Shown here: positions 1-61,000 of the stretch, piece after piece
Position numbering within the stretch: the stretch's first letter is position 1
Layout: every line of letters starts with the position of its first letter
DNA from: Mortierella sp. BCC40632
Taxonomy: Eukaryota; Mortierellomycota; Mortierellomycetes; Mortierellales; Mortierellaceae
Assembly (NCBI GenBank): GCA_011634665.1
Contig: WAEK01000017.1
Span: forward strand, 797,501-861,500
Reading direction: 5' to 3'
Length of the DNA stretch: 64,000 bases
Program-made: the position numbers and the translations under genes
The notes under the pieces: model-generated
The model's database searches: none
The model's input: only the letters and a program-made list of their open reading frames with translations
Told to the model about the DNA's origin: nothing

Positions 1-17
1 TCACATTTCGTCCCGTC

Positions 18-2156
18 ATGGTCCAGTCATTGGCCCATCTCCGACATTTGGTTCGTGGGACGCATGCTTCCTCCGAGCCCTTGGTATCGTCATCTGACCA
101 ATCAGTCAGATCTCGGAGAGGGTTGGTGCCATCCACTCTGCAGATGGACGTCGATCCAATGACCACGGGGGTCGAGCCGACCTTCTTCAAAGACCCTGAA
201 AGCCCTGATGCTCAGGCCCTTGGCACAGACGAGTCTAGCCCTTATCAATCGACTATCGAGTTTTTGGCACTCTTGACGGCATTTGTCAGTGTGGTCTGCT
301 GGCTACTAGACCGTTCTCTCAATTCCAACTCGGAGAGTTTGGAAGGACCCCAAAGAGATGTCCCAATGACTTTTGAAGGTGAAGAAAGTCAAGAGAAGAG
401 ACCTCACGGGCATAGTCTATTCGAGTTTCTGAACCAGTTTGACGATCGTGACAACATCCTGAAACAGATTGATGATGCTCTCTCCACAGAGTCCAGACAA
501 AAGGACCCTGTGGGGATGACAGCAGAGAGCTCTATGCTCCCTGTGGGTTTGCTTGCATGGTACTACCGTCTTTATTCGAAAGACCCCCAGGCTCCACTCA
601 TGACCGAGGGAGCCAAAGTGGATAAGGATGCTATCGAATCTACTCACTTTGACGCGATTGTGAACGTGCTCTATACCACCCATGTGTTGAACATCTCAGT
701 CAAGGAACATCAAAAAGACCATGGCCAGTTTTATACGCCTTCGGGTGTAGTTGACTTTATGTGGGCTCGATCTACCGAGGGACATGGGGCGCTTTTACAG
801 GGAGTGGTCAGTTATTTGAAAAATCTGACAAAGATTCGTTCCGACACCGCCTTTGCTAATGATGTACCCCAAGGAGGGTATTCGACAGCAACTTTTAGCA
901 CCCATGTTTTTCCGAGCACAGAGATACCCATCCCATCCAAAGCCTTGATCCCTACTGCGATCGATCCATGTCTTGGTGTTTCTACTTTCCTGTCATGTTA
1001 TGTCCGGCTTTTGATTCAAGAGGCAAAGGAAACGGAGGTTATTTGGGGTACATTAGAGGGATGTCAACTTTTGTTGTATCAAATGTGTGAACATTTATGG
1101 GGGATAGAATTAGATGGGTTTGCGTTTTGGATAGCTCGTTGTGGTATCTTGGCTGCATTGATTCCACTCACAGAACGTGTACGGACGTTAATGGATTTAT
1201 CGACTCGATCGTCCTTGGCCACTATGACTCCTGTATCCTCTCATCACCCAGGATCTGTGATTCCAAATATTTCTGAAGAGGAAGAGCAACAACAACATCA
1301 ACAACAACAACGATCCTTTCGACGTGCTTTCCTCCAACTTCCAAAACTTCATCTCTTCAGGAACGATACCTTGCAGTTGACGGTCCCCGAGGGTACTACA
1401 CCGGACATTGCATGGGAGCGAGAGTGTCTTCTTCGACTACGGAACCCAGCACGACTTCGATTCGATTTCATTGTGACGAATCCACCGTATATGATCCGGA
1501 AAACAGGAACGTTTAGTGCACCAGACCCTGAAGTCTATGATTGGCGAATTTTGGGTACATCTTCTAGTGCAGTCAAGGTGAATACGTCGACAGGGGCAAG
1601 AGCCAAATCAAAAGGTGGACGGAAGAGAGAGTTTGTACTCAATGAGCAAGAGGAAGAAAAAGGGATGAGCGGCACAGAGTGGACGGCAACGACAGGTTCA
1701 ATAGGCTACGATAGTGGCGATGATTATCAGACGGAAGGTCCAAGATCCGAATCACCCATGTCACAGGGATCGGGAGAGGTGTCGACAGGAGAGAGGCCAT
1801 TGGGACAAACAAGAATCACGACACGAGGCATGATGCAGGCTTATGGATATTTTATCTTGTTTGCAGCTCAGCGGATCAAACCATACGAAGGAGTTATGTG
1901 TATGATTACAGGTAAGAAGAATGAATATGGTCGTCTGTAATCCTACATATATATTTCTTCATTCATGGTTACGAAAGTAGGGGGGGGGTACTGACAGCTA
2001 AACCATACACTTCTTCTCCTCTCTTTCTAGCTAGTCAATGGTTGACATTGGAGTTTGCCGTCAATCTCCGGTTAGGAAACAGCGACTCAAGAAGGGACCA
2101 TCCTTCTCTGTTTATTTTCTTTCATTCTTTCCTCCTTTCCTCTTTTTTTCTTCTAA

Positions 2157-2205
<49 letters not shown>

Positions 2206-4912
2206 GCTTTTTAGAATTGCTTGTATTCTTGCACATGCTCATGTCCATTCGTAGAGTCTTTGTTAATGTTCTTTAACTTCTTTTTTTTTCTCTCTCTCTC
2301 TTTGGAATATCATAATCTAGCTCCTGGTTATTCGAACATTGCCTTATGGACGAGTTCTTTCAATTCGAGCCGTTCAAGGTCTTTGCCGGAGTCCAGACAG
2401 ATTCGCTTATCTTCAAGATTCGATCAATCGTCGTTTCGGGAGGACCACCTGGGGTCACGACTATCCAACCAAATGATCAGATTCGACATTTGAATGCCAT
2501 CACTGGACATAGAACTCTCTTCCTTCGACATACAGATCATCAAAGCTCTCTGGCAGGTATTTTGCTTGACTACAAGGATTATCTTGACTCGATCAAGTCT
2601 ACCGTTCATTCCAATGAAGGCCAGGTAGTCAAAGACAAAAAGTTGGGCCTCCAAATCATGGTCTCCAACAAGACCCGCGAGGAGCTTCGGCATGCTATCA
2701 TGACGACCTCTTCTTCTTCTTCTTCTTCTGGATCTGCTTTACTTTCTCAAGAACAAGAGTCTTTCGGGAGTGAGCCAACTCTATGTAGTTTCTCGTTTGC
2801 CCCCATGATGCCCGCATCCGTCTTGACAAGCTTCATGCTTTCCTTGACCCGAGGACTAGCAGGGATTTGTTCCGCTGCCACCAAGAGCAGCAGTCGATGG
2901 TCGACCGTAGAACCATTGCTATGGCATCGAGGACCGAATACGAATCCAGTCTATGGCCTGGTAGTTCGAATGGAGTATATCCGAGAGTTGATTGGAGACC
3001 AAGCGACCGAGCGATGGTTCCAACCTGTGTTTTATTGGAACGGCAAGAACGCACCCGAATCGACCAAGGAAAGTCAAGAGTTGGGGACTAACCCTAATCG
3101 GACTGTCGAGACAGGCAAGGGGCTTCACAAGGAAGGGAAATTCTGGCAAGGAAGAGATAGTCTTCGTCTAAGCAAGAAGGAAGGGTCTCCTGCAGAGTCT
3201 TATGTGGTACCGAGACCAAGGAAACAACGACTTTATGGGCTTTGTATGGTCGATCGAGAGTCGGTCAAGGTGTTGAGACAACAAGCGGAGGGAATGGATG
3301 AAGGAGCAAGCAAGTTGTTACAGTATCTGTTGCAAGTCCGTGCTCATTTCCAACCAGGGTCTGTGTCCAAACGGTCCAAGGTTCCCTCGGGTCACTTCCC
3401 GACTCCAGTCCATGGGAGTGGTATCCTGCAAGGTATAGAGGATAGTGATGTTGCCTCTTGCACGATCAGCCAATGCGGGTATGTTCAACCTTGTTCATGT
3501 GTGCTCTTTTATTATTATTATTATTATTATTGTCATTACTATTGTTTTTATTATTAACACAAAAAAGGATCTTGCTCCACTCTATCGATAGGCGCGATAT
3601 TTCAGAAAAGATTATCCATCCGATCAACTATGGGTATTTTTCCAAGACGCAACCACGTCCACGGTTCTTTCTGGATCAATCCTCTGTCGCAGTCACCAAC
3701 CAATGCATCTACTTGACATTGAACGAACGTTACCAACGTACAACCGAAGAAGCTTCCTCGACAACTTGTCCTCCTCCTCCTCCTCCTGGCTCGCTAATCT
3801 ACTTTCTGACCTTGTTAAATTCCAGCACTCTTCAGTTCTTTATGCTTCATTTCTGTCAATATGATCAACAAGGTCGGATGCGACTCTTTCGGGATTCAAT
3901 GGCCAAGATTCCCTTTCAGGATAGAGATTTGAAAACTCATCCGACTAGGGTGGAGTATGCGGAACAATTGGGTCGGACATTGATTGATCTCAAGGAGGTT
4001 CTATACGAGGCAGTTCATGCATGGTATCTCGCAGGAGGACAACCAGGACATCATCATCACCATCCACATCACCCACATCACCACCGTGCACAGAGTACTC
4101 GACATCATCGTGGGCAGGATCAACAAGGGGCTACTCCGAGAGGTCGGCGGGGAAGAGAACGGTCAGGGAGTGGACGAGGTTTGGAATCAGGAGGCGGGAC
4201 AGGCGGGCAAGGGTTACTGGATTGGATACGACGAGGTGGGGATATGCCCTCAGTGATCCATGGACGTATCAAGGATCAAATCATGACCATGCTTATGCTA
4301 TGGTCGGGTTCGGGGATGAGGATGACAAGGGAAAAAGAGATGGCAGAGGAAATACCCGAGGCAGGAGAGTCGACTTTTCAACATGGAGAGAGCATACCGT
4401 TGCTGTCTGAGGAGGAACAAGAGAGAGAATGCGACAGAATCATTACTGCAATGGAGCGAGTGGCGACGGTGGTAGAAATGATGCAATGGGCCGTGGATCA
4501 ATATGGATATATGCTTTATGGGATCCGAGCACAGTACCAAAAGTTACTCGAACTTGAGCTCAAGATTGTCTATGGCACTTGGACCGAGTCGGTCGTTTTG
4601 GAGTCGACAGCCGCTGTGACCGAGTCTGGGTCCTCGATAGGGTTAGGGATGGAATCAGAAAAAGAGACTTTTTTGTCCAGTCTTGGAATCACGATCACCG
4701 AGTTGCATCGATGGGATGGAGAAGGTCTTGACAAGAGTCGGTTGAAGGAGGATGAAATGCAAGAGTTGGATGAGCTAAAGAGTTTACCTCCTCCAGCAAG
4801 AGATTCGTCCTCGGGAGCTATTCCGTTGTATGGTGCAGCCCTTGTGGAGAATGCACGCCAGGCCATAGCAGCTCTAAAGGACCTTCTTCACGTATACCCT
4901 CCAATGCCATAA
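18..4912 (+). CDS. Type IIG/Eco57I-like N6-adenine DNA methyltransferase with TaqI-like specificity region, four exons
   Basis: Exons 18-1911, 2031-2070, 2321-3478 and 3568-4912 join with matching phases into 1478 residues. The frame is also open upstream of 18, so the true start may lie outside the window. Visible methylase motifs in order: GQFYTP (236-241, SAM pocket), DPCLGVSTFL (316-325, motif I; the second Gly of the usual DPxxGxGxFL is Ser), WGIELD (361-366, motif II) and the catalytic FIVTNPPY (484-491, motif IV). YGYFILFAAQRIKPYEG then MITASQWL follows, rebuilt exactly across intron 1. The C-terminal third has the features of TaqI/type IIG target-recognition regions: IIHPINYGYF, FFLDQSS, LLNSSTLQFF and AKIPF. 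By family knowledge such enzymes methylate adenine N6 in specific DNA sites. No PD-(D/E)XK nuclease motif is evident. Extra features are a hydrophobic stretch at 81-97, Q/E-rich and acidic insertions (418-432, 530-600) and a His-rich, then Arg/Gly-rich, insert near the C-terminus. Activity and cellular location are not known. Confidence 0.88.
1912..2320 (+). other. Introns 1 and 2 of the methyltransferase gene flanking a 40-nt micro-exon
   Basis: Intron 1 (1912-2030) runs from GTAAGA to CTTTCTAG. A 40-nt exon (2031-2070) encodes part of the conserved stretch after the catalytic motif. Intron 2 (2071-2320) opens with the weaker donor GTTAGG and ends AATCTAG. Joining the pieces gives SQWLTLEFAVNLRSWLF, the expected methylase context. 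Without these introns the frame runs into a poly-lysine artefact from the A tract. Confidence 0.85.
2158..2202. repeat. Poly-A run inside intron 2 of the methyltransferase gene
   Basis: About 45 consecutive A residues on the coding strand, followed within 120 nt by a T-rich and CT-rich tract leading to the acceptor. The two could pair as an A/T stem in the pre-mRNA. Confidence 0.95.
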
Positions 4913-15603: not shown

Positions 15604-16971
15604 TTATGCGAGTAGCATTAGTGCTCCAATCATGGCAATCACGAGATATAGCCCCGTAGTCACCCTCATCGTCTTGTCTCCGCTACTGGGCTTCAACGGC
15701 GTGATCACGGCGCCACCAGGGACCGGGTTGCCGGACAAACCCTCCTCGCCCAAGAATGAGTTTGAAACATTCACCTTGGCAATACTGATCCTGCTTGAGC
15801 CTGGTGTAAAGTCATAGACAGCATACACTTGCCGCAGGAATGGATCGCCTAGGATATACATCTCATAGTTGCCCAAGGGCATCACAAGCGAGACACAGAG
15901 CGGGGATCCATTGCCGGCATTGGCAATGTAGTCTAGGTAAGGAACCTCGTACTTGATCCCGTTGAACGACACACCAAATGTCATGTTGGAGTTGCCCTTG
16001 CAAGGCACCGTGTAAACCTGATCTGTGGTCGAGAACTGAGCTCCAGGGATCTTGGAATGGAACTCTTGAGCAAATGTGGTGGGTACCGCAATAAAAGACG
16101 TACCCGTATCAAACAACCATGGTGCCTTCGTATAACCAGAGATCTCCTGGTCGCCAGCATAGGCCATGTCCGCATCCACATACCACATGCCTTCCCGGAC
16201 GCCTGCTCCTGTTGAGAGTGGGATGTTGTTCAATGGACCTGAAAACTTTGTGTAGTCAATGCCTCCAAACAGGAACGTGCCACCTTGATTCGGAACAAGC
16301 GTTGCAGCCAAATAGACGGAAAAGACGTTCATGTCCAGCAACTTGTCCTTGTAGATTGTTGCCAGTGGAGGCACTGCGTTGACGACAGGTGAAGCAGGCA
16401 TCAGACCGACAAGGCCAGAGATGCCGGGTCCATAGGAGGACAGGTCGAGACCACTCTTTGTAATGTCTAGGATCTGCTGGTTGTGGACGACGAGACCACC
16501 GATAGAGACAGTGTCAGAAACGATCGGGCCTGCGCCCCAAGTGCCGTCCCCATAGGTGATGTTGTACGAGTAGGGCGTCTTTGTACAAGAGGTGCAGACA
16601 TAGTGCTTCATGTCGTTGCAGTGCAGACCCTGGCACTGGTCCGAGGTGATGACAATCATATCACTGCCAGTGTCAAAGACTACCTCGAACGACTGGGGCG
16701 GGTTGCCGAGCTCAATGGTGCCCGAGTAGCCGAGGTTGCGAGCATTGGTGACAATGGACGTGCCAAGGTACTTTGAGGCAAAGAGGTGACCGGGAGGAGT
16801 GTTGGTGCTGGATGCAGGAAGATGCTTAGAGACTTTGACTTCGAATGTCTTGGCATCTGTGACAGAAAAGAGTCCTGATGGCGATGAGGAGAGGAGAGCG
16901 GTGTGGAGGAGGAGAAGGATGGCGAGCGCGCTGAAGGAGTTGGATCGTTTCGTCATTGCCGAGGACGACAT
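15604..16971 (-). CDS. Secreted, probably GPI-anchored aspartic protease (pepsin family A1)
   Basis: Single exon, 455 residues. A hydrophobic signal segment covers about residues 12-30. The two catalytic Asp motifs are DTGSD at Asp100 and DTGTS at Asp288. The flap motif ITYGDGT places the flap Tyr at 140. The bilobal A1 landmarks GTIELGNPPQSFEVVFDTGS, GISGLVGLMP, FLFGGID and YILGDPFLRQVYAVYDF are present. After the catalytic unit comes a Ser/Pro-containing linker and a C-terminal hydrophobic helix (about 437-455) with no basic tail, which resembles a GPI-attachment signal as in fungal yapsins. The role is inferred to be extracellular or cell-wall protein cleavage. The propeptide (about 31-70) is short. 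It differs from the vacuolar-type A1 protease 10 kb away in having no introns and in its C-terminal tail. The start at 16971 gives a complete signal peptide. Confidence 0.93.
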   Translation of the reverse strand: MSSSAMTKRSNSFSALAILLLLHTALLSSSPSGLFSVTDAKTFEVKVSKHLPASSTNTPPGHLFASKYLGTSIVTNARNLGYSGTIELGNPPQSFEVVFDTGSDMIVITSDQCQGLHCNDMKHYVCTSCTKTPYSYNITYGDGTWGAGPIVSDTVSIGGLVVHNQQILDITKSGLDLSSYGPGISGLVGLMPASPVVNAVPPLATIYKDKLLDMNVFSVYLAATLVPNQGGTFLFGGIDYTKFSGPLNNIPLSTGAGVREGMWYVDADMAYAGDQEISGYTKAPWLFDTGTSFIAVPTTFAQEFHSKIPGAQFSTTDQVYTVPCKGNSNMTFGVSFNGIKYEVPYLDYIANAGNGSPLCVSLVMPLGNYEMYILGDPFLRQVYAVYDFTPGSSRISIAKVNVSNSFLGEEGLSGNPVPGGAVITPLKPSSGDKTMRVTTGLYLVIAMIGALMLLA

Positions 16972-17557
16972 CTCGGCGGCGGCTGTGGAGAAGGGGGAAG
17001 AGGAGGAAGAGGAGGAGGAAGAGGAGGAAGAAGAGGAAGTGGATGAAAAAAGAGAAAGAGAAAGAGGAGGATAAAGTAGAGGAGAAAAGACGACGAAGAC
17101 GACGGCGACGACGTGCAGCGGCGAGTGACAAGGGGAAGGACGAGAGGCTCGACGGTTATGGACGGATCATCCAAAGGGGAGAGGCCATCCAGCTGGACAG
17201 GCTGGAAAGAGACCTAGGGTCCAAGGGTTTATCCGTGGCTGTAGTTGTGCAGCTGTCTACGGGCGGAGACGAGGGAGATGAGTGGACGGTGAAAGGACGG
17301 TGACAGGACAGTGGCAAGACAGTGACAAAGGAAATTGACAGGAGAGGGGCAAGAGGAGACAGGGATCCGGAGAAGCAATGACAGAAGAGCAAGTGAGAAG
17401 AGAAGAGAGGATAAACAGAGGAGAGGAGAGGAGAGAGAGAGAGAGAAAGAGAGAGAGGAGAAGAAGAAAGGAGAAAGAGAAAAATGGAGCCAACAGGGGA
17501 ATAAGGGAAAAGAAGATGAAAAAAAGAACAAGAAAAAAAAGAAAAAAAAAAAAAATG

Positions 17558-19992: not shown

Positions 19993-21158
19993 CTGAGGGG
20001 GAAGGGCAATGAAACGAAGGGAGAAAAGAGGAGGTCGTCAAAGAGGGCGTGGGTTGCTCTATTGGCTGTGTTTTGTTGTCCTGGTTTGTTGGAAGGAGAA
20101 GTCGTCAGTGCCTGGAGTGGGGTACCGTGTTAGTGTGGGTGCAGGGTCGTTCAGCAAATGTTGATCCGTTGAAGTAAAAGAGAGTGTGCGTGTGTGAGAG
20201 AAGAGGAAAGGCGGCTGGTGTAAGTTCTGTTTGGAGGAGAGTATGTACAGAAGGTGCTTGCGCAGAATGAATAAAAGGTGCAAGAGTCAAGCAACGGGGA
20301 AAGTAAGGGCATTTCTTCAAGATTGCCAGCTGCAACGCTTTATAGTGCAAAAAATAAAAAATAAAAAAAACCACTGTTGTCGGCATGACCACGACCACTA
20401 CGAATCGGTATGATGGGCTGGAGAGGGGGGTACCCCCAGAATATGAGAACAGAGAGATCACGCTCCCATGTATCCTAACCCCTCTCTCTCCTCGTGAAAG
20501 GTCAGGCTGACTTCTAGACGCGGTCATGCACAACACACCGATTCTCTACCCCGACTACGACAGGGGACTATTTGTACAATGGTGCAACAAGGCCCTGTCT
20601 ATGGCGCATGTCGTTCGTTACGAAAGGGGCGATGGCAAAAGGGAGGTGAGGTGTTGAGAAACAGGTCTGGAGGGCATAAAAAGAAGAAAAGGGGGGTTGG
20701 ACATAGGACATCTGAGGATTCAAAAAAGAATGCGGCTCGTGCCTGAATTCGGATCTTTCTTCGGTCGGTAGTGGGCGAGACACGGCCATGCGGGCGTGAT
20801 TAGGATAAACGGCAGGTTCGGACACATCGCATCGACCAGGGGGGGGGCAGTAGTAGCAAGAGACGAGACCCGCACAAGAGACAACGATGGTTGCCGTGTC
20901 GAGTTTTGTGTCGAGTGGCCATCTATCCCCAAGGCAGGCTTTGCCCTAGGCAGTTTACCTTGATTGAGGTGGCTGATGTGTTCGTTGGAAGGCTCTTTCC
21001 TCACTGATCGCTGATCTTGGAAGGAGCACGCCTTGGAGAAGTCTGTTTGTTGGTGGGCCGCAGTGATTAATTGACTGTGCCTCGTCCTCGCCACAGTGCC
21101 GCAGCACGTCCCCCCCCCCTGCCTTCGCCCTCGTCGTAGTGGTGCTCTCGGTGCATGG
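19993..21158. other. Divergent promoter region between coiled-coil gene and FCP1-like gene
   Basis: About 1.1 kb. No supported coding sequence. It should contain both 5' regions. G and C runs occur at 20837-20845 and 21111-21119. Confidence 0.55.
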
Positions 21159-22361
21159 ATGCATTCTTCACTTCTTTACAAGCACCCATCTAAGAGCTAC
21201 CTTCTCTCATCCAGATCTCTACCTCTCCTCTCTCCTCATCTTCTCTCAAGACCCATTTCCACTTTCACATCCAAAAGATCTTCTGCAATGACCCAGAATC
21301 CATCCCCCAACAACAAGTCCTCGATGCGTAAATCATCTGTGCCAGAGGTAGACTCTCTGACCGGTGCCTTCGGTGACCTTCAGATTCGCACACAGCCGAC
21401 CAACAGAACTAACAACTACCAAGGAGGTTCTCGAGGCAGCTACGATAAGAACTGGGGTCAAGATAGAAGGGTAAACACAGGCAGCGGGTCAAGGTCAGGG
21501 CCACGACCCACTTCTGGGTCAGGTCCTAGTCGTAGTTCTGGCAGGGAGAGTCCACCCATTAGCCCGAATGGCTCTCGTTCCGCCTACTATAACGAGGAAA
21601 CCAAGACCTTCTTTCCTTCGAAACCCATCCGACCCATTACACCCTCTTATCTGACCGTGGCTTCACAGGAACCAGCCATTCTCACCAGCCCACAAAAATT
21701 GCTTATTATCCTTGACCTAAACGGAACCCTCTTTTATCGAGCCAAGAACAATAAGCGCAATGTTACCTCACGCCCTTACCTGCAAGAATTTCTAGATTTT
21801 ATCTTTGAGAACTGTCGCGTCATGGTCTGGTCCAGTGCACAACCGCATAGTGTTGAGGCTATGCTGAGCTATGGATTTGGCGGGCGATCCTCGCTTCTGG
21901 ACCGAATCTGGACACGAGAGGACTTTCGATTGCCTAGATCGGATTACATCAAGAAAGTCCTTACAATTAAGGATCTCGAGTTTGTCTGGGAAGGGATTGA
22001 ACTTGAGAAGAAAAAGACTCAAGGGGGACACCAGAGAAAATCGTCGCATGAGGGGATCAAATTTGAAGAGATTGTGGGCTCAAAGGAGGTAGTGGACGAA
22101 AAGCATGCGATCCATTTTGACCAAACCAACACCGTATTGATTGATGACTCTCATGACAAGAGTCAATTGCAGCCTCACAACGGCTTGGTCCTCCGTGACT
22201 TTGATGAGGACCTAGCTAAGGCTGGCAATGACGATGAGTTGCTAAGGGTGAAGCAATATCTCGAAAAGCTGATTTACCAATCGAACGTGAGTGCTTACAT
22301 GAGTCGACACCCCTTTAGTTCAAGTATCCCTCTTGAAGGTAATTTCATCCGCATGAGTTAA
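21159..22361 (+). CDS. FCP1/NIF-type HAD-family protein with altered catalytic motif
   Basis: 400 residues from the chosen ATG. The frame also offers ATGs at 21096 and 21288. The 21159 start gives an Arg/Ser-rich, acid-free N-terminus (SSLLYKHPSKSYLLSSRSL... RPISTFTSKRSS) that looks like a mitochondrial presequence. Starting at 21288 would remove it. A Gly/Ser/Arg-rich linker follows, then the FCP1 homology region: KLLIILDLNGTLFYR (nucleophile Asp186), SRPYLQEFLDFIFENCRVMVWSSA (motif II), WTREDF and KDLEFVW, and TVLIDDSHDK (motif IV). Classical members have DLDxT; here the second Asp, the general acid, is Asn188. DLNGT variants are familiar in fungal paralogues. Likely a Ser/Thr phosphatase-like or Tim50-like protein; substrate unknown. 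No introns needed. Fairly sure of family, not of activity or location. Confidence 0.85.
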   Translation: MHSSLLYKHPSKSYLLSSRSLPLLSPHLLSRPISTFTSKRSSAMTQNPSPNNKSSMRKSSVPEVDSLTGAFGDLQIRTQPTNRTNNYQGGSRGSYDKNWGQDRRVNTGSGSRSGPRPTSGSGPSRSSGRESPPISPNGSRSAYYNEETKTFFPSKPIRPITPSYLTVASQEPAILTSPQKLLIILDLNGTLFYRAKNNKRNVTSRPYLQEFLDFIFENCRVMVWSSAQPHSVEAMLSYGFGGRSSLLDRIWTREDFRLPRSDYIKKVLTIKDLEFVWEGIELEKKKTQGGHQRKSSHEGIKFEEIVGSKEVVDEKHAIHFDQTNTVLIDDSHDKSQLQPHNGLVLRDFDEDLAKAGNDDELLRVKQYLEKLIYQSNVSAYMSRHPFSSSIPLEGNFIRMS

Positions 22362-47881: not shown

Positions 47882-49376
47882 CTATTGAAGAAAGGCCTTC
47901 AAGCTCTCGATCTGCGCCAGCACAGTCGCACGGCTCGTGCCTCCGGGGGTGCATCGGTTCTCAATGCTCTGTTCATAATTCCAGACCTTAGCCACATCCG
48001 CCTCAAACGCTGGATGAAGATTCTTAAAGTCCTCCAGTTTCAAGTCCGCCATTGTGCATTGACGCTCCTCTGCAATTCGGACTGCCTCGCCAGCAATGTG
48101 GTGTGTATCACGGAAGGGAACTCCCTTCCTGACTAGGTACTCGGCCAAATCGGTGGCCAACATGTCAATGCTCAGACTAGCCAACATCTTGTTCGAGTTC
48201 ACCTTCAAAGTCGAGAGCACTCCGGTTGTGATCTGGAGCGAACCCAAGACGGTGTCGTAGGCGTCAAAGACGGGCTCCTTATCTTCCTGGAGATCCTTGT
48301 TGTAGGTGCTGGGGGTGGCCTTGTAGGTCATCATAAAGCCTGTCATGTCACCAAAGACGCGTCCAGACTTGCCACGCAAGAGCTCAAGACTGTCTGGGTT
48401 CTTCTTCTGAGGCATCAGACTGCTTCCTGTGCTGTTAAAAAAAGAAAAAAAAAAAAAAAAGTCAGCTTAGACAGTCACATCTCGATAGGCAATCCGCTCC
48501 GTCAATGACCCAGAATAGTTCTAACCTGTAGGCATCCGCGACCTGGATAAAGCCAAACTCGCCCGTACTGTAGATGATCAAATCCTCGGCAAGACAACTG
48601 ATGTGGACCATCGTCAACGAGGCCCAGAACAAGAACTCGGCGACGAAATCACGATCGCTGACTCCATACAACGAATTGGGGATAATCGAATCAAACCCAA
48701 GTTCCTTGGCCAAAAAGTCTCGATCAATCCCAAAGGGGTTTCCGGCAAGAGCGCCCGATCCGAGAGGCAATTGGTTCATGCGCTTGAGAAGTTGTTCGAG
48801 TCGAAGACAATCTGCATGCCACTTCCAGGCGTGCGACAACAACAGATGAGACCATCGAATGGGCTGTGCACGCTGAAGATGAGTGTATCCAGGCATGATG
48901 ATATCGATCTCACTTTCAGCTCGAGCAACAGCCGTGGCAATCAATTCCTTGAGGACAACAACAATCTTCTGGCCTTCATCACGGACCCAGATGCGAAAGT
49001 CGGTTGCCACCTGATCATTCCTGGATCGACCTGTGTGAAGCTTTCCGGAGATGGCTGTGCCAATGATCTCTCCAAGTCGACGCTCGTTTGCCGTGTGAAT
49101 ATCCTCATCGCCATCTTTGAGGACAAAGGAGGAGGACTCCCATTCAGCTAGAACCTTGTCCAAGCCTTCGTGGATCTTGGCGGCTTCGGCTTCCGTGAGA
49201 ATTTGCTTTTTGGCAATGGCCTTGGCATAGGCTTGGGATCCGATAATGTCGGCCTTGTAGAAGCGAGAGTCAAAAGAGATGGAGGCGTTAAACTTTTCCA
49301 TCAGTGGATCCGTCTTTCCTGTGAAGCGGCCACCCCAGAGCTTGCGGGGAGCGACGTCTTGTGCTGGAGCCGACAT
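47882..49376 (-). CDS. ARG4: Argininosuccinate lyase
   Basis: Exons 49376-48526 and 48431-47882 (donor GTTAGA, acceptor AACAG) join in phase to 466 residues, the usual family length. It cleaves argininosuccinate to arginine and fumarate, the last step of arginine synthesis. Landmarks: [20 protein letters not shown] (N-terminus), [47 protein letters not shown] (catalytic His region), [17 protein letters not shown], and the signature [12 protein letters not shown], which spans the exon junction and proves the splice. The C-terminus has [15 protein letters not shown]. All key motifs are intact, so an active cytosolic homotetramer is expected. A TATAAAA element lies 215 bp upstream (minus). A TGAATCA sequence at 49659-49665 is one base from the Gcn4/Cpc1 site TGACTCA, a weak hint of general amino-acid control. 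Confidence 0.98.
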
Positions 49377-50012
49377 GATTATTTGATATAGAGAGTAGTG
49401 TGGTTGTGGGAAAGAAGAAGGAGGGGTTTTATGTACAGACTGGTGAACTGGGTAGAGTGCACGAGATGAAGATAGGAGGAGGAGGAGGAGGAGGAGGAGG
49501 AGGAAAGTAAAGCTAGCAGTGAAGCGAGACTAAAGAGAGATAGAGAAAAGAAGAATAAAAAAGATGAGGTATCAGCGATCGACGGGGGGCTTTTATAGAC
49601 GGCTCTCCGGTGGTCAGGGCAGCTGTTTTGACCCATGGGGACTAATTATTAGAGTTTGTGAATCATGGTGTGTCTCCTCCTCTCTCTCCAGCCCCACCAG
49701 GGACAATGGCCTATGAGACTGCTTTCTGAATTTATTGAACTGATCTGTTTTGTGCTTGTGTGTGTGTGTGGACTAGCCTGGCCTGGACCAGAACTGGGCA
49801 GGACACAAGGACAGGTCGGCTCCCTTTAGCCTCTCTATCTCTCTTCGAACGTTCTCTCGCACTCTAGGGATAACCAGACGACGGACAGAGCGGGGCTCGG
49901 AGAGAAGAAGGGACATATCGAGACTCAGCATCGACACAGAACCTGAATCGTGTGCTATGAACACTGTTGTTCTGGAGATCAGATCCATACCCAGATCATC
50001 AGGTGTTCACTC
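49377..50012. other. Divergent promoter of argininosuccinate lyase and multi-SANT genes
   Basis: 636 bp shared upstream region. Contains (GGA)n, a TATA for the minus gene, a GT tract near 49756-49771 and a C/T-rich part near 49675-49700. No gene seen. Confidence 0.6.
49591..49597 (-). promoter_or_regulatory. TATA box of the argininosuccinate lyase gene
   Basis: TATAAAA on the minus strand, about 215 bp before the ATG at 49376. A (GGA)n tract (about 49475-49503) lies in the intervening leader. Confidence 0.5.
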
Positions 50013-51989
50013 ATGTCACGGTTGATCCGCTCCACACGATCTAGGATCCTGTCAAATCAGACCCAGCGGATCAACCTCACTCTCTCATCAAACACCACCC
50101 TGATCAATGCACGAGCGCTCTACTCTACCCTCAACCCTGTGCCTAGAGACGAATCAGACTCTACCCTTTGCTCAACACCACCTCTCACAAGAACGCCTCT
50201 TTCCACGGCTGTCCGGACCGAAAATGCTCCTCCAGAGGTGAACTCTTCAAACGCACAGCCACGCAAAGCACCTTGGCTTCGAATCCACTCCTCGGCCTGT
50301 GAACAGGCCTCGATATCGACCAAGGATCAGGTGTCTAGATCATTCTCGTCGTCCTCTTCCTCAAAGGGCCGGAACAATCAACCCTGGACACGCGAGGATG
50401 ATACAAAGTTGATGGACATGCGCCGACAGGGCCATACTTGGAAAGATATTGGTCATGCTCTAGGCCGGTCACGACAGGCTTGTAACCGTCGTTTTGATGC
50501 CCATCTTGATCCGCGATTCGGATTGCCTACAGCGGCCGACATTACCTCCGCCCTTGTCAGTGAAGGATCACCCAGTACTACTGACTCCTTGCCGTTAACA
50601 AGGACATATCAGCCAGGTTCATTTTGGGAGGAAGATCCAGAGAGAATCGAAATCTTGAAGAAAATGGCTCACGAAGGAATCGCATGGAAGGAGATTGCAC
50701 TCGAGTTGGGAGATGTCAAGGCTTCCGCCTGCGAGAAACAATGGCGTCTCTTGCGACGACAGCTCCACTCAACCACATCGCACTCCTCCCTTCAGGATCA
50801 AGAGGAAAAGGACACCCATGAACCATCTGCTTTGGATACAATGTCGGATCTCAATACAAAGCAGAGTCGTCACCCATCAATCCAGTTCAGGAGAGCCGAT
50901 GTAGAGCGACTGAAACGTGCTGTCCATGAATATGGAATGGATCAATGGGACCACATCTCAACAGAGGTCTTTCAATCACAATTCAGTGGATCTCTTCTTA
51001 GGCGCCAATACACACAGATAGAGAGACGAAGGAGGGTATGGACAGATGCTCAAGAAAGGACGCTTGTTCGACTAGTCCAAGAACAGACACCATGTCCATT
51101 TCCAGGGTCGGGGATTTTGACTAGTAAAGCCGAATCAACAACAGCAACAAAGGTGGTGACAATAGACGATCTTTTAGACGAGCAATGGGAGTCTATCTCG
51201 CGAGATGTCCCTGGAGAACACACCGGTGAAGAATGCAGGAGACGATGGCTCACTCTGGGATTAAACCAATCTAGAAAGCTAAACCAAGAAGGATCAAATG
51301 GTGTGAAAATGACTGAGGTTGACCCAAGCAACAAGGAGAACAGTTCTCCAAGCCAGGATCTAGAGAAATCACTAGAGACCGCAAGGAAACGACGCGTTAC
51401 TTGGACTCGTGAACAAACACAAAGACTAGAATCCATTATTGAGAATATGAGAGAATTGGGTGATAACAACTATTACCTTTACCGACGCAATCTTGCTCTC
51501 AACCACAACAATAAGCCAAAAAAGAATCCTGATCATGAAAATGATCGATCTACCATGACCTACTTCAACAACAACTCGATCCAAGATGGACTTTTGGATT
51601 GGTCTCTTATTGCGGATGAAATGCGGGACGAAACCACGGGCGAGATCCTCTTTACAAAAACCCAATGCAAATCACGTTGGACTCGACTCTTACGAGAACA
51701 GGCTCCTACCAAGAAATCGGGATCATGGGAAGAAGAAGAAGTGGAAGCATTGATCCGGGGATTAATAGAAAAGGGTCCACAATGGACCGAAATTCAACAG
51801 GCATTTGTACCAGGTCGATCGCCTACGTTTATTCAGGGCAAGTGGAAGATGATTCGGACCAAGATTCAAAAGAATATGATTATTGAGAGAATATCTTGGG
51901 ATCAGGCTGCAATTGGGTTGTTTGGAGATCGTGTTGGAGCTCAGATGGAACTTTTGGTCAAGAAGAGACCTAATCTCTGTTTAGATTGA
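50013..51989 (+). CDS. Multi-SANT/Myb-domain protein with presequence-like N-terminus
   Basis: 658 residues, single exon; an earlier in-frame ATG at 49950 is possible. The chosen start yields MSRLIRSTRSRILSNQTQRI and then NARALYST: many Arg/Ser, no acidic residues, a good candidate mitochondrial presequence. Myb/SANT-like repeats are seen as Trp-spaced helices: QPWTREDDTKLMDMRRQG...WKDIGHALGRS (about 125-170), FWEEDPERIEILKKMA...WKEIALELG, ADVERLKRAVHEYGMDQWDHIS, RVWTDAQERTLVRLVQ...WESISRDV...ECRRRW, VTWTREQTQRLESI...DWSLIADEM...QCKSRWTRLL, and GSWEEEEVEALIRGLIEKGPQWTEIQ...GKWKMI. That is about six, with alternating Trp/Phe cores. By family knowledge such arrays bind DNA. Target and compartment are unknown; a nuclear role is the usual default. 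The signal AATAAA lies 87 bp after the stop. Confidence 0.82.
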   Translation: MSRLIRSTRSRILSNQTQRINLTLSSNTTLINARALYSTLNPVPRDESDSTLCSTPPLTRTPLSTAVRTENAPPEVNSSNAQPRKAPWLRIHSSACEQASISTKDQVSRSFSSSSSSKGRNNQPWTREDDTKLMDMRRQGHTWKDIGHALGRSRQACNRRFDAHLDPRFGLPTAADITSALVSEGSPSTTDSLPLTRTYQPGSFWEEDPERIEILKKMAHEGIAWKEIALELGDVKASACEKQWRLLRRQLHSTTSHSSLQDQEEKDTHEPSALDTMSDLNTKQSRHPSIQFRRADVERLKRAVHEYGMDQWDHISTEVFQSQFSGSLLRRQYTQIERRRRVWTDAQERTLVRLVQEQTPCPFPGSGILTSKAESTTATKVVTIDDLLDEQWESISRDVPGEHTGEECRRRWLTLGLNQSRKLNQEGSNGVKMTEVDPSNKENSSPSQDLEKSLETARKRRVTWTREQTQRLESIIENMRELGDNNYYLYRRNLALNHNNKPKKNPDHENDRSTMTYFNNNSIQDGLLDWSLIADEMRDETTGEILFTKTQCKSRWTRLLREQAPTKKSGSWEEEEVEALIRGLIEKGPQWTEIQQAFVPGRSPTFIQGKWKMIRTKIQKNMIIERISWDQAAIGLFGDRVGAQMELLVKKRPNLCLD

Positions 51990-58094: not shown

Positions 58095-61000
58095 ATGTTT
58101 GGCATCCCAAAGAAGGCTCGCACGGCTCCGCCCAAGGCCGTTGCACCAAGGCTCTTTGCCCCTTTCCGGGCCATTGGTTATGTCACCAATGAAATCCCCT
58201 TCCACATCCAGGCTAGAGGAGATACCTACACTATTACTACATGTGTCGGCAACACTTTCCATATCTATGATATGACCAAGCTGAATCTGCTCTTTGTCGG
58301 TAATGTTCTCGATCCACTTTCGACATGTTACAGTCTACTTGAATCGATGGCATGACTGTTCCAAGGCAATAGTATACTATGTACTTTCTTCTAACGCTAT
58401 TGCTTATCCATCGTTCTCTCCATGCGGACATCACTAGGCCCCCACACCACTACCCCTATCACAGCATTGACGACCCATAAGGACTTTGTCTTTGTTGCAT
58501 GTGGACCGGACGTTATCACATACAAACGTGCAAAGGAGATCAGGAGATATTCGTGTGGACCTGACTCAAGGCTGTCAATAGCCTCGTTGGAGGTTTTTGG
58601 AGATCACCTTATCTCGGTCTGCAGTGACAATACTGTCAAGCTTCATGAGCATGGATCAGGAGGTATAGTGAAGACTGACAAAAATGAGGGGCTACGATGA
58701 CAGGCAGAAACGAAGAGAAAAAAAGATATGGCTATACAATAGGATCTTTAAACCTTACTAATCTGTCCTCGGCCACTATCTCCATTTCCTATCGATTTAT
58801 CTCTCGCTCTCCTCCTTTTGCTACACTGTGTTCAGATCTTTACACGACCTTGGAGTTTGACGACTCGTTTACCGTGACGACCTTGATCCATCCCAGCACA
58901 TACCTCAACAAAATCTTGATTGGAAGCACTCAGGGAACGATGCAACTCTGGAACATTCGTACGAGCACTATGATCTATGCCTTCAAGGGATTTGGCTCTC
59001 CTGTTACCTGCCTCACTCAGACGCCTGTTGTCGATGTCATTGCCGTCGGTCTCCTCGACGGGTCGATTATCCTTCACAACATTAGGATAGATGCTACAAT
59101 CATGACGCTGAAGCAGGAAGGCAAGGTCACGGCAATTACTTTCCGTACAGGTAAGCAGATAGTGAATACGGACTGAGAAGCAACTTGTCCACACAAATCA
59201 TCCCCTTGCCCTCATAACACTGACATCTTTTGTTCTTTTACCCTAAAATGACTATAGATGATCAGCATGTCATGGCAACAGCAAATATGTATGGTGATAT
59301 TGCGCTCTGGGACCTGGACAGCCAAAGGATTCTCCATGTCATGAAGGGAGCCCACGATGGTGCCATTCCTTCGATCCAGTTCCTGAACGGACAAAACATT
59401 ATGCTCAGCTCCGGAGCCGACAACTCGGTCAAGCAATGGATCTTTGACAGTTTGGATGGTTTGCCACGTCTGCTCAAATCTCGGAGCGGTCACCATGCGC
59501 CACCAACCCAGGTCCGCTACTATGGTCATGATGGACGATTCATTCTCTCGGCTGCTCGTGATCGATCACTTCGTACATTCTCGACCGTTCGCGATTCTCA
59601 GTCGATGGAATTGTCGCAGGGTACGTTGAGCAAACAGTCCAAGCTCTTGAACCTCAAGATTGATGACCTCAAGCTGCCATTGATCACCACTGTGGCTGCT
59701 CAGAATGCCAAGGAGAAGGACTGGGACAACATCTTGACCACACACTGGAACGAGCCTGGAGTCCGGACATGGAATTTCCAACGCAAGGCCTTGGGTGCAC
59801 ATGTGATGAGTCCCAAAGATGGAGCCACTGCCAAGTCAGCAACTGTCAGTGTCTGCGGCAACTTTGGCTTTATTGGTTCGGCGTCGGGTGGAATTGATAT
59901 GTTCAACATGCAGTCGGGACTGCACCGCCGTTCCTTTGGAGATGCAAGTGAGGGTCACAAGAAGGCAGTGACCGGTCTCCAGTCTGATCGATTGAACAAG
60001 ACTTTGGTGTCGGGTTCACTCGATGGATTTTTGAAGATGTGGGACATGAAGTCTGGCAAGTGCGAACATACCATGGACATGACCGCACCCATCACGCAAC
60101 TCTTGCTCTACCCTGAAAACAACATCATGGCTGTTGTTTGTGACGATCTCTGCATCCGCATTGTCGATATTGAGAACCGTCGTATTGTCAGAGAATTCTG
60201 GGGTCACTCCAACCGCATCACTGATATGGTGCGTGGACTTTTTTTCTTTTGTTTTGTTTTGCTTTGCTTTGTTTGTCTTCTTGGTCCTTGTCATTCTTAA
60301 TGCCTATTCATAGTTTGAGTGATGAAATGGACACCGATAACTCACGCCTCTTGTCCTTTTCGTTTTACCACAATAGACCTTTAGCCCTGATGGCCACTGG
60401 CTTGTGTCCTCGTCCTTGGACGCCACAATCCGTACATGGGACTTGCCCACGGGCCATATGGTTGATATTTTCAAGTGTGATAGCATTGCGACCAGTGTTT
60501 CGTTCTCGCCCACTGGTGACTTTTTGGCGACCTCGCATGTGGACAATGTTGGTATCTTTTTGTGGGCCAACCGTATGCAGTTCACTACTGTGTCGTTGAG
60601 AAGCATTACGGATGATGATGTGATCCGCGTTGCCTTGCCAACTGCAGCTGAGGATGATGAAGATGAAGAAGGTAAACCTATCGCAATGTTTAATTGTCTT
60701 GCGGTGATATATTTACTCAAGATTTAGTCTTTGGCTTCTTAATATTCATTACAACTATTTCTTTTCTTTCATAATAGTTGATAACCTGTTTGCATCCAAC
60801 GATGAGGTACAGGCACTGGAGTCCACAGTCGAATCTGCCGAACAATTGACGGAACAGATGATTACTTTGTCTCTTTTGCCAAAGTCAAAGTGGCAGACTT
60901 TGTTGAGTCTGGATGTGATCAAGGCAAGGAACAAGCCTAAGGAGGCCCCCAAGGCCCCCGAGAAGGCTCCCTTCTTCTTGACCACCCTTCCAGGCGTGGT

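What the first reader, a model, noticed from the sequence alone, without database searches (positions are those of the whole stretch)
18..4912. Intron-containing type IIG/Eco57I-like N6-adenine DNA methyltransferase in a fungal genome
The gene encodes GQFYTP, DPCLG, GIELD and FIVTNPPY in the order of a bacterial N6-adenine methylase, then a TaqI/type IIG-like specificity region. Seen directly: three GT-AG introns whose removal restores conserved sequence (MITASQWLTLEFAVNLRSWLF; QCGILLHSIDRRDISEK). This makes bacterial contamination very unlikely. Known: early-diverging fungi carry abundant N6-methyladenine, usually attributed to MT-A70-family enzymes, which this is not. Inference: an old transferred restriction-modification methylase, domesticated, that could be a sequence-specific or stress-linked DNA (or RNA) adenine methylase distinct from the MT-A70 system.
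Basis: partly seen in the sequence, partly recalled or inferred. Interest (0 to 1): 0.88.

Follow-up and report, generated by a model that had tools for sequence, protein, structure and literature searches.

The report
Fungal MetB-type DNA adenine methylase
This fungal gene encodes a DNA-marking enzyme of bacterial ancestry; the same enzyme family is already known from related fungi, and this copy comes from a branch that shares an unusual change in its cofactor pocket.

Summary
The window carries an intron-containing gene for an Eco57I/N6-type adenine methyltransferase with a C-terminal target recognition domain. The true start probably lies left of the window (base 18 looks like an internal Met). 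The third intron most likely ends at 3591, not 3567, giving QCGRDISEK as in relatives.

Relatives occur in many Mortierellomycota genera, Mucoromycotina, Glomeromycotina and Basidiobolus. This is very probably the family of MetB, which Lax et al. 2024 showed to write asymmetric 6mA (AAA6mACA) in Mucor and traced to an old bacterial transfer; that paper already lists Mortierellomycota.

The parts
3..1911 (+). Exon 1 as far as the window shows it (5' end probably cut off by the window edge): N-terminal helical part and first part of the methyltransferase domain
   Evidence: Open frame from base 3; resemblance to internal sequence of P0023; upstream lengths of relatives
1912..2030 (+). Intron 1 (GTAAGA...CTTTCTAG), 119 nt
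   Evidence: restores MITASQWLTLEF as in relatives
2031..2070 (+). Exon 2 (40 nt)
2071..2320 (+). Intron 2 (GTTAGG...AATCTAG), 250 nt
   Evidence: restores NLRSWLFEHCLMDEFFQFEP, compare KLRAWLFENCLMDEFFQFEP in P0001
2321..3478 (+). Exon 3: end of the methyltransferase domain and first part of the target recognition domain
3479..3591 (+).
   Evidence: 32 of 43 Mortierella-type rows show the site, all 32 with one residue between G and D
3592..4912 (+). Exon 4: rest of the target recognition domain, helical C-terminus, stop codon 4910-4912
723..740 (+). Motif X, GQFYTP
963..989 (+). Motif I, DPCLGVSTF; Ser codon at 981-983 replaces the second Gly of the SAM loop
   Evidence: Ser in 40 of 94 related rows with this motif, Gly in 54
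1479..1490 (+). Motif IV, NPPY, catalytic
636..2543 (+). Span of the methyltransferase domain (residues 207-719, introns included), containing a low-confidence insertion after NPPYMIRKTG
   Evidence: Mapped from the modelled Mucor relative by alignment; model of exon 1
2673..3901 (+). Span of the target recognition domain (introns included)
   Evidence: Mapped from the modelled Mucor relative by alignment

Best explanation
The gene is the Mortierellomycota ortholog of MetB: a solitary, nuclear-encoded DNA adenine-N6 methyltransferase of bacterial ancestry. A class I catalytic domain binds SAM (motifs X and I) and methylates a flipped adenine through NPPY; a C-terminal target recognition domain reads a short, fixed, non-palindromic site, so marks are asymmetric. 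It works beside the MT-A70 system (AMT1/MTA9) that writes symmetric ApT marks. Shown here: gene structure in the window, family, domain order, one locus found, MT-A70 genes in the same genome, constraint on the recognition domain. Inferred: methylation in this fungus, the target (AAA6mACA-like, from Mucor), base flipping, nuclear site of action.
Against: The published Mucor lusitanicus MetB sequence itself was not compared: the text points to supplements that I could not open. The window protein is below the N6_Mtase cut-off (12.3 of 20.4 bits), and no MmeI_TRD (PF20466) profile hit was found in the genome or in six family members, although the paper reports it by HHpred. Conidiobolus and Paraphysoderma, named in the paper as holders, did not turn up. 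Motif I carries Ser for Gly, so activity in this clade is not certain. Within Mucoromycotina the recognition domain is slightly less conserved than the catalytic one (60.5 vs 61.8%). No methylome or RNA data for this organism.
Confidence: 0.8

Rival explanations
1. In Mortierellomycota the enzyme has lost or much reduced catalysis through the changed SAM pocket and now acts mainly as a sequence-specific DNA-binding protein.
For: Ser for the second loop Gly in all 40 Mortierella-type rows with the motif plus the window, Gly in the other 54; 12 clade-diagnostic columns, including Lys-to-Arg and Asn-to-Gly 8 and 10 residues after GIELD.
Against: NPPY is present in all 40 of those rows and GQFYTP in 39, missing only in P0015. 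The catalytic domain is about as conserved as the recognition domain within the clade (74.5 vs 76.2%), unlike a decaying enzyme.
Confidence: 0.1
2. It is an RNA (rRNA or tRNA) adenine methylase.
Against: Among the 50 rows shown, those that span catalytic and recognition domains together are DNA methylases; metB deletion in Mucor removes DNA 6mA (PMC11258239).
Confidence: 0.05
3. It is part of a working restriction-modification system with a nuclease.
For: Catalytic part resembles type IIG and type ISP enzymes.
Against: No nuclease family among the Pfam hits of the window protein or six relatives, although the window's 5' end is missing; the recognition domain does not diversify.
Confidence: 0.03
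4. Bacterial contamination or a very recent transfer.
For: Bacterial-type domain.
Against: Three GT-AG introns; position inside a Mortierellomycota branch; window neighbours include WDR36/Utp21, Myb-repeat and NIF-phosphatase genes; contig of 1.2 Mb.
Confidence: 0.01

Closest known systems
MetB of Mucor lusitanicus (Lax et al. 2024, PMC11258239)
   Same: Non-MT-A70 N6 adenine methylase of bacterial origin in early-diverging fungi, with a recognition domain; Mortierellomycota named among the holders
   Different: Mortierella-type proteins have Ser in motif I and mostly lack the N6_Mtase label: 3 of 40 rows list PF02384; the window protein scores under that profile's cut-off
CamA of Clostridioides difficile (PDB 7rfk, 7lt5, 7lni)
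   Different: 13-18% identity in the structural alignments; its catalytic domain starts at residue 1, so it has no counterpart of the N-terminal helical part; bacterial
MmeI (5hr4), DrdV (7lo5, 7lvv), LlaBIII/LlaGI (type ISP), BREX PglX/BrxX
   Different: Restriction or phage-defence enzymes (names as given); recognition part diverges in the type ISP control
AMT1/MTA1-MTA9 (MT-A70) complex
   Same: DNA 6mA writer whose genes are in the same genome
   Different: Different family and motif (DPPW in L006, against NPPY); symmetric ApT marks according to PMC11258239

Membership tests
MetB (fungal clade 1) | Groups with Mucoromycotina, Glomeromycotina and other fungal relatives, apart from bacteria | tested here: met
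   fungal branch 99, Mortierella branch 100; only six bacterial-type rows, some flagged as long branches
MetB (fungal clade 1) | N6_Mtase (PF02384) domain, the profile used in the paper | tested here: inconclusive
   Window 12.3 bits, cut-off 20.4; Mucor P0074 63.4, Mortierella P0008 17.8; the Eco57I profile is well over its cut-off in all of them
MetB (fungal clade 1) | Catalytic NPPY and motif X | tested here: met
MetB (fungal clade 1) | MmeI-like target recognition domain | tested here: met
MetB (fungal clade 1) | Direct match to the published Mucor lusitanicus MetB sequence | not tested
MetB (fungal clade 1) | Writes asymmetric AAA6mACA in vivo | not testable with these tools
   No methylome data
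MT-A70 | PF05063 domain with DPPW | tested here: not met
   One search lists no PF05063 match for the window protein; the catalytic motif is NPPY
Type IIG restriction-modification | Fused nuclease domain | tested here: inconclusive
   No nuclease family in Pfam scans, but the window's 5' end is missing

The most novel reading that the evidence does not exclude
Mortierellomycota as a whole re-tuned their MetB: the SAM-loop Gly-to-Ser change with neighbouring pocket changes gives a methylase with altered rate, cofactor affinity or product pattern while the DNA target stayed fixed, making a natural lineage-wide variant of asymmetric 6mA writing.
Probability: 0.2. Interest if true: 0.5.

Novelty: new member of a known kind. 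Interest (0 to 1): 0.32.

Why it matters
It extends a published but little-studied 6mA writer to a further Mortierellomycota genome. Two testable additions follow: the recognition domain is conserved across these fungi, unlike in the bacterial restriction relatives tested here, which predicts one shared DNA target; and one change found in every Mortierella-type row with the motif sits in the SAM loop, which asks whether asymmetric 6mA is written differently there. It also warns that a census by the N6_Mtase profile alone would start from few Mortierella members.

Tried and rejected
The Eco57I and N6_Mtase searches of the own genome rang elsewhere (C3 and C11) and not at the window: both places are HemK/PrmC-like methylases, so I searched with relative P0008 instead and found only the window locus, in five exon pieces. 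A possible membrane helix near residue 85 was dropped: it aligns with the helical region of relatives and is modelled as a helix of the N-terminal part. A mitochondrial targeting idea for the N-terminus fell because base 18 is probably not the start. An apparent excess of recognition-domain conservation within Mortierella (69 vs 58%) shrank to 76 vs 75% on well-filled columns, so I do not claim it. Searching bacterial genomes with family-specific patterns found no relatives (32 stretches, none confirmed); a second scan, with the bacterial P0104, gave the control loci. Rfam, tRNA and a promoter scan of the first 100 bases gave nothing. The regex for junctions 1 and 2 was badly written and matched nothing; it was redone. 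Conidiobolus and Paraphysoderma, named in the paper, did not appear in my searches; searches scored only the candidates sharing most words.

Full report
What is in the sequence. Window 3-4912 (+) holds a gene with three GT-AG introns. It encodes, in order, a helical N-terminal part, a class I methyltransferase domain with GQFYTP, DPCLGVSTF, GIELD and NPPY, a target recognition region and a helical C-terminus. Pfam finds Eco57I at 2.8e-12; TaqI_C and N6_Mtase are under their cut-offs. The genome to the left is withheld. The third intron most likely runs 3479-3591: this gives QCGRDISEK, and all 32 of 43 Mortierella-type rows that show the site have one residue at that place; 11 do not show it.

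Relatives. Three protein searches gave 64, 95 and 59 hits, 108 distinct proteins. The weak last hits (E 4e-8 to 5.5e-4, 11 proteins) are two named bacteria and nine unnamed. In a tree of 45 rows the window falls inside a Mortierellomycota branch of 17 rows with support 100, its place among 14 of them unresolved. In the group table Mucoromycotina (12) and Glomeromycotina (7) are each one side of a branch with support 100, leaving out three ungrouped rows; the 12 by themselves have 97. The fungal side has support 99 against six bacterial-type rows (two named bacteria), several of them long branches flagged by the program. Assignment of genera to Mortierellomycota is recalled taxonomy.

Known family. 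Lax et al. 2024 (PMC11258239; outline with abstract, sections 11 and 13 and passages read) describe MetB, an N6_Mtase protein of early-diverging fungi. By their account its deletion in Mucor lowers 6mA by 70-75%, mainly affects asymmetric marks and removes the AAA6mACA motif; the fungal clade includes Mortierellomycota and is traced to an old bacterial transfer. A 2025 survey (PMC12695648; passages) names MetB as an alternative 6mA route; a 2026 review (PMC13297926; passages) tabulates it. A study of Rhizophagus (PMC8298701; passages) examined MT-A70 proteins. Paper searches returned 19 papers for 6mA with early-diverging fungi or Eco57I, 4 for MetB, 6mA and Mucor, 1 for Mortierella, 6mA and adenine methylation and 2 for asymmetric 6mA with MetB; I saw no paper devoted to the Mortierella protein in those listings. 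The published MetB sequence could not be compared directly; the Mucor circinelloides relative P0074 stands in for it.

Domestication test. On well-filled columns (298 catalytic, 269 recognition; 40 rows) mean identity, catalytic value first, is 44 vs 45% between Mortierella-type and Mucoromycotina rows (225 pairs), 48 vs 50% between Mortierella-type and Glomeromycotina (105), and 51 vs 52% between Mucoromycotina and Glomeromycotina (105). Within groups it is 74.5 vs 76.2% (Mortierella-type), 61.8 vs 60.5% (Mucoromycotina) and 80.8 vs 83.9% (Glomeromycotina). In six type ISP relatives (15 pairs; one protein and two loci named as bacteria) the catalytic part is 63-92% identical and the C-terminal part 31-58%. 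So the control pairs are closer in the catalytic part, yet further apart in the recognition part. This is one control family. The fungal recognition domain is under about as much constraint as the catalytic domain, as expected for a fixed target and not for a restriction system.

Lineage-specific change. Of 94 proteins with a readable motif I, 40 have DPC.G.S and 54 have DPC.G.G. The 40 are 37 named Mortierellomycota proteins and 3 unnamed ones; the window makes 41. Twelve columns separate 15 Mortierella-type rows from 25 others. NPPY is intact in all 40. I cannot tell whether activity is changed. Only 3 of the 40 rows carry the precomputed PF02384 label, so a census with that profile starts from few of them.

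Genome context. A relative used as query finds only this locus in the 49.9 Mb genome (exon-wise search of the best candidates, so a divergent or withheld copy could be missed). The genome also has three MT-A70 places: an AMT1/MTA1-like gene (1.4e-14), an MTA9/AMT7-like gene (2.5e-10) and a gene whose best PDB match is labelled Methyltransferase-like protein 2 (6e-16), which I recall to be the plant METTL4. Genes of both known 6mA routes therefore seem present.

Verdict. The finding is real and well read, but it is a further member of a published family. Confidence that it is a MetB ortholog is about 0.8; that it writes asymmetric 6mA in this fungus is inferred, perhaps 0.6.

Noticed in passing
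L004 1219-2705 (-) (own genome C11, near 583958-584260): A HemK/PrmC-like methylase frame lies downstream, on the same strand, of a frame with a weak RNA pseudouridylate synthase match (4.4e-5, just under cut-off); possibly one fused gene.
   Followed up: partly
L003 4506-5438 (-) and 2376-3923 (-) (own genome C3): A second HemK/PrmC-like methylase, which set off the Eco57I search, sits next to an Obg-type GTPase gene.
   Followed up: partly
window 963-989 and 40 of 94 related proteins: Gly-to-Ser change in motif I plus Asn-to-Gly after GIELD in Mortierella-type proteins; effect unknown.
   Followed up: partly
window 15607-17166 (-), 21075-22358 (+), 48465-49529 (-), 49947-51986 (+), 59224-60297 (+): Ordinary eukaryotic neighbours in 5 of 10 long frames scanned: aspartyl protease, NIF-type phosphatase, Lyase_1 enzyme, Myb-repeat protein, WDR36/Utp21; the other 5 had no Pfam hit.
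   Followed up: no
   Followed up: no
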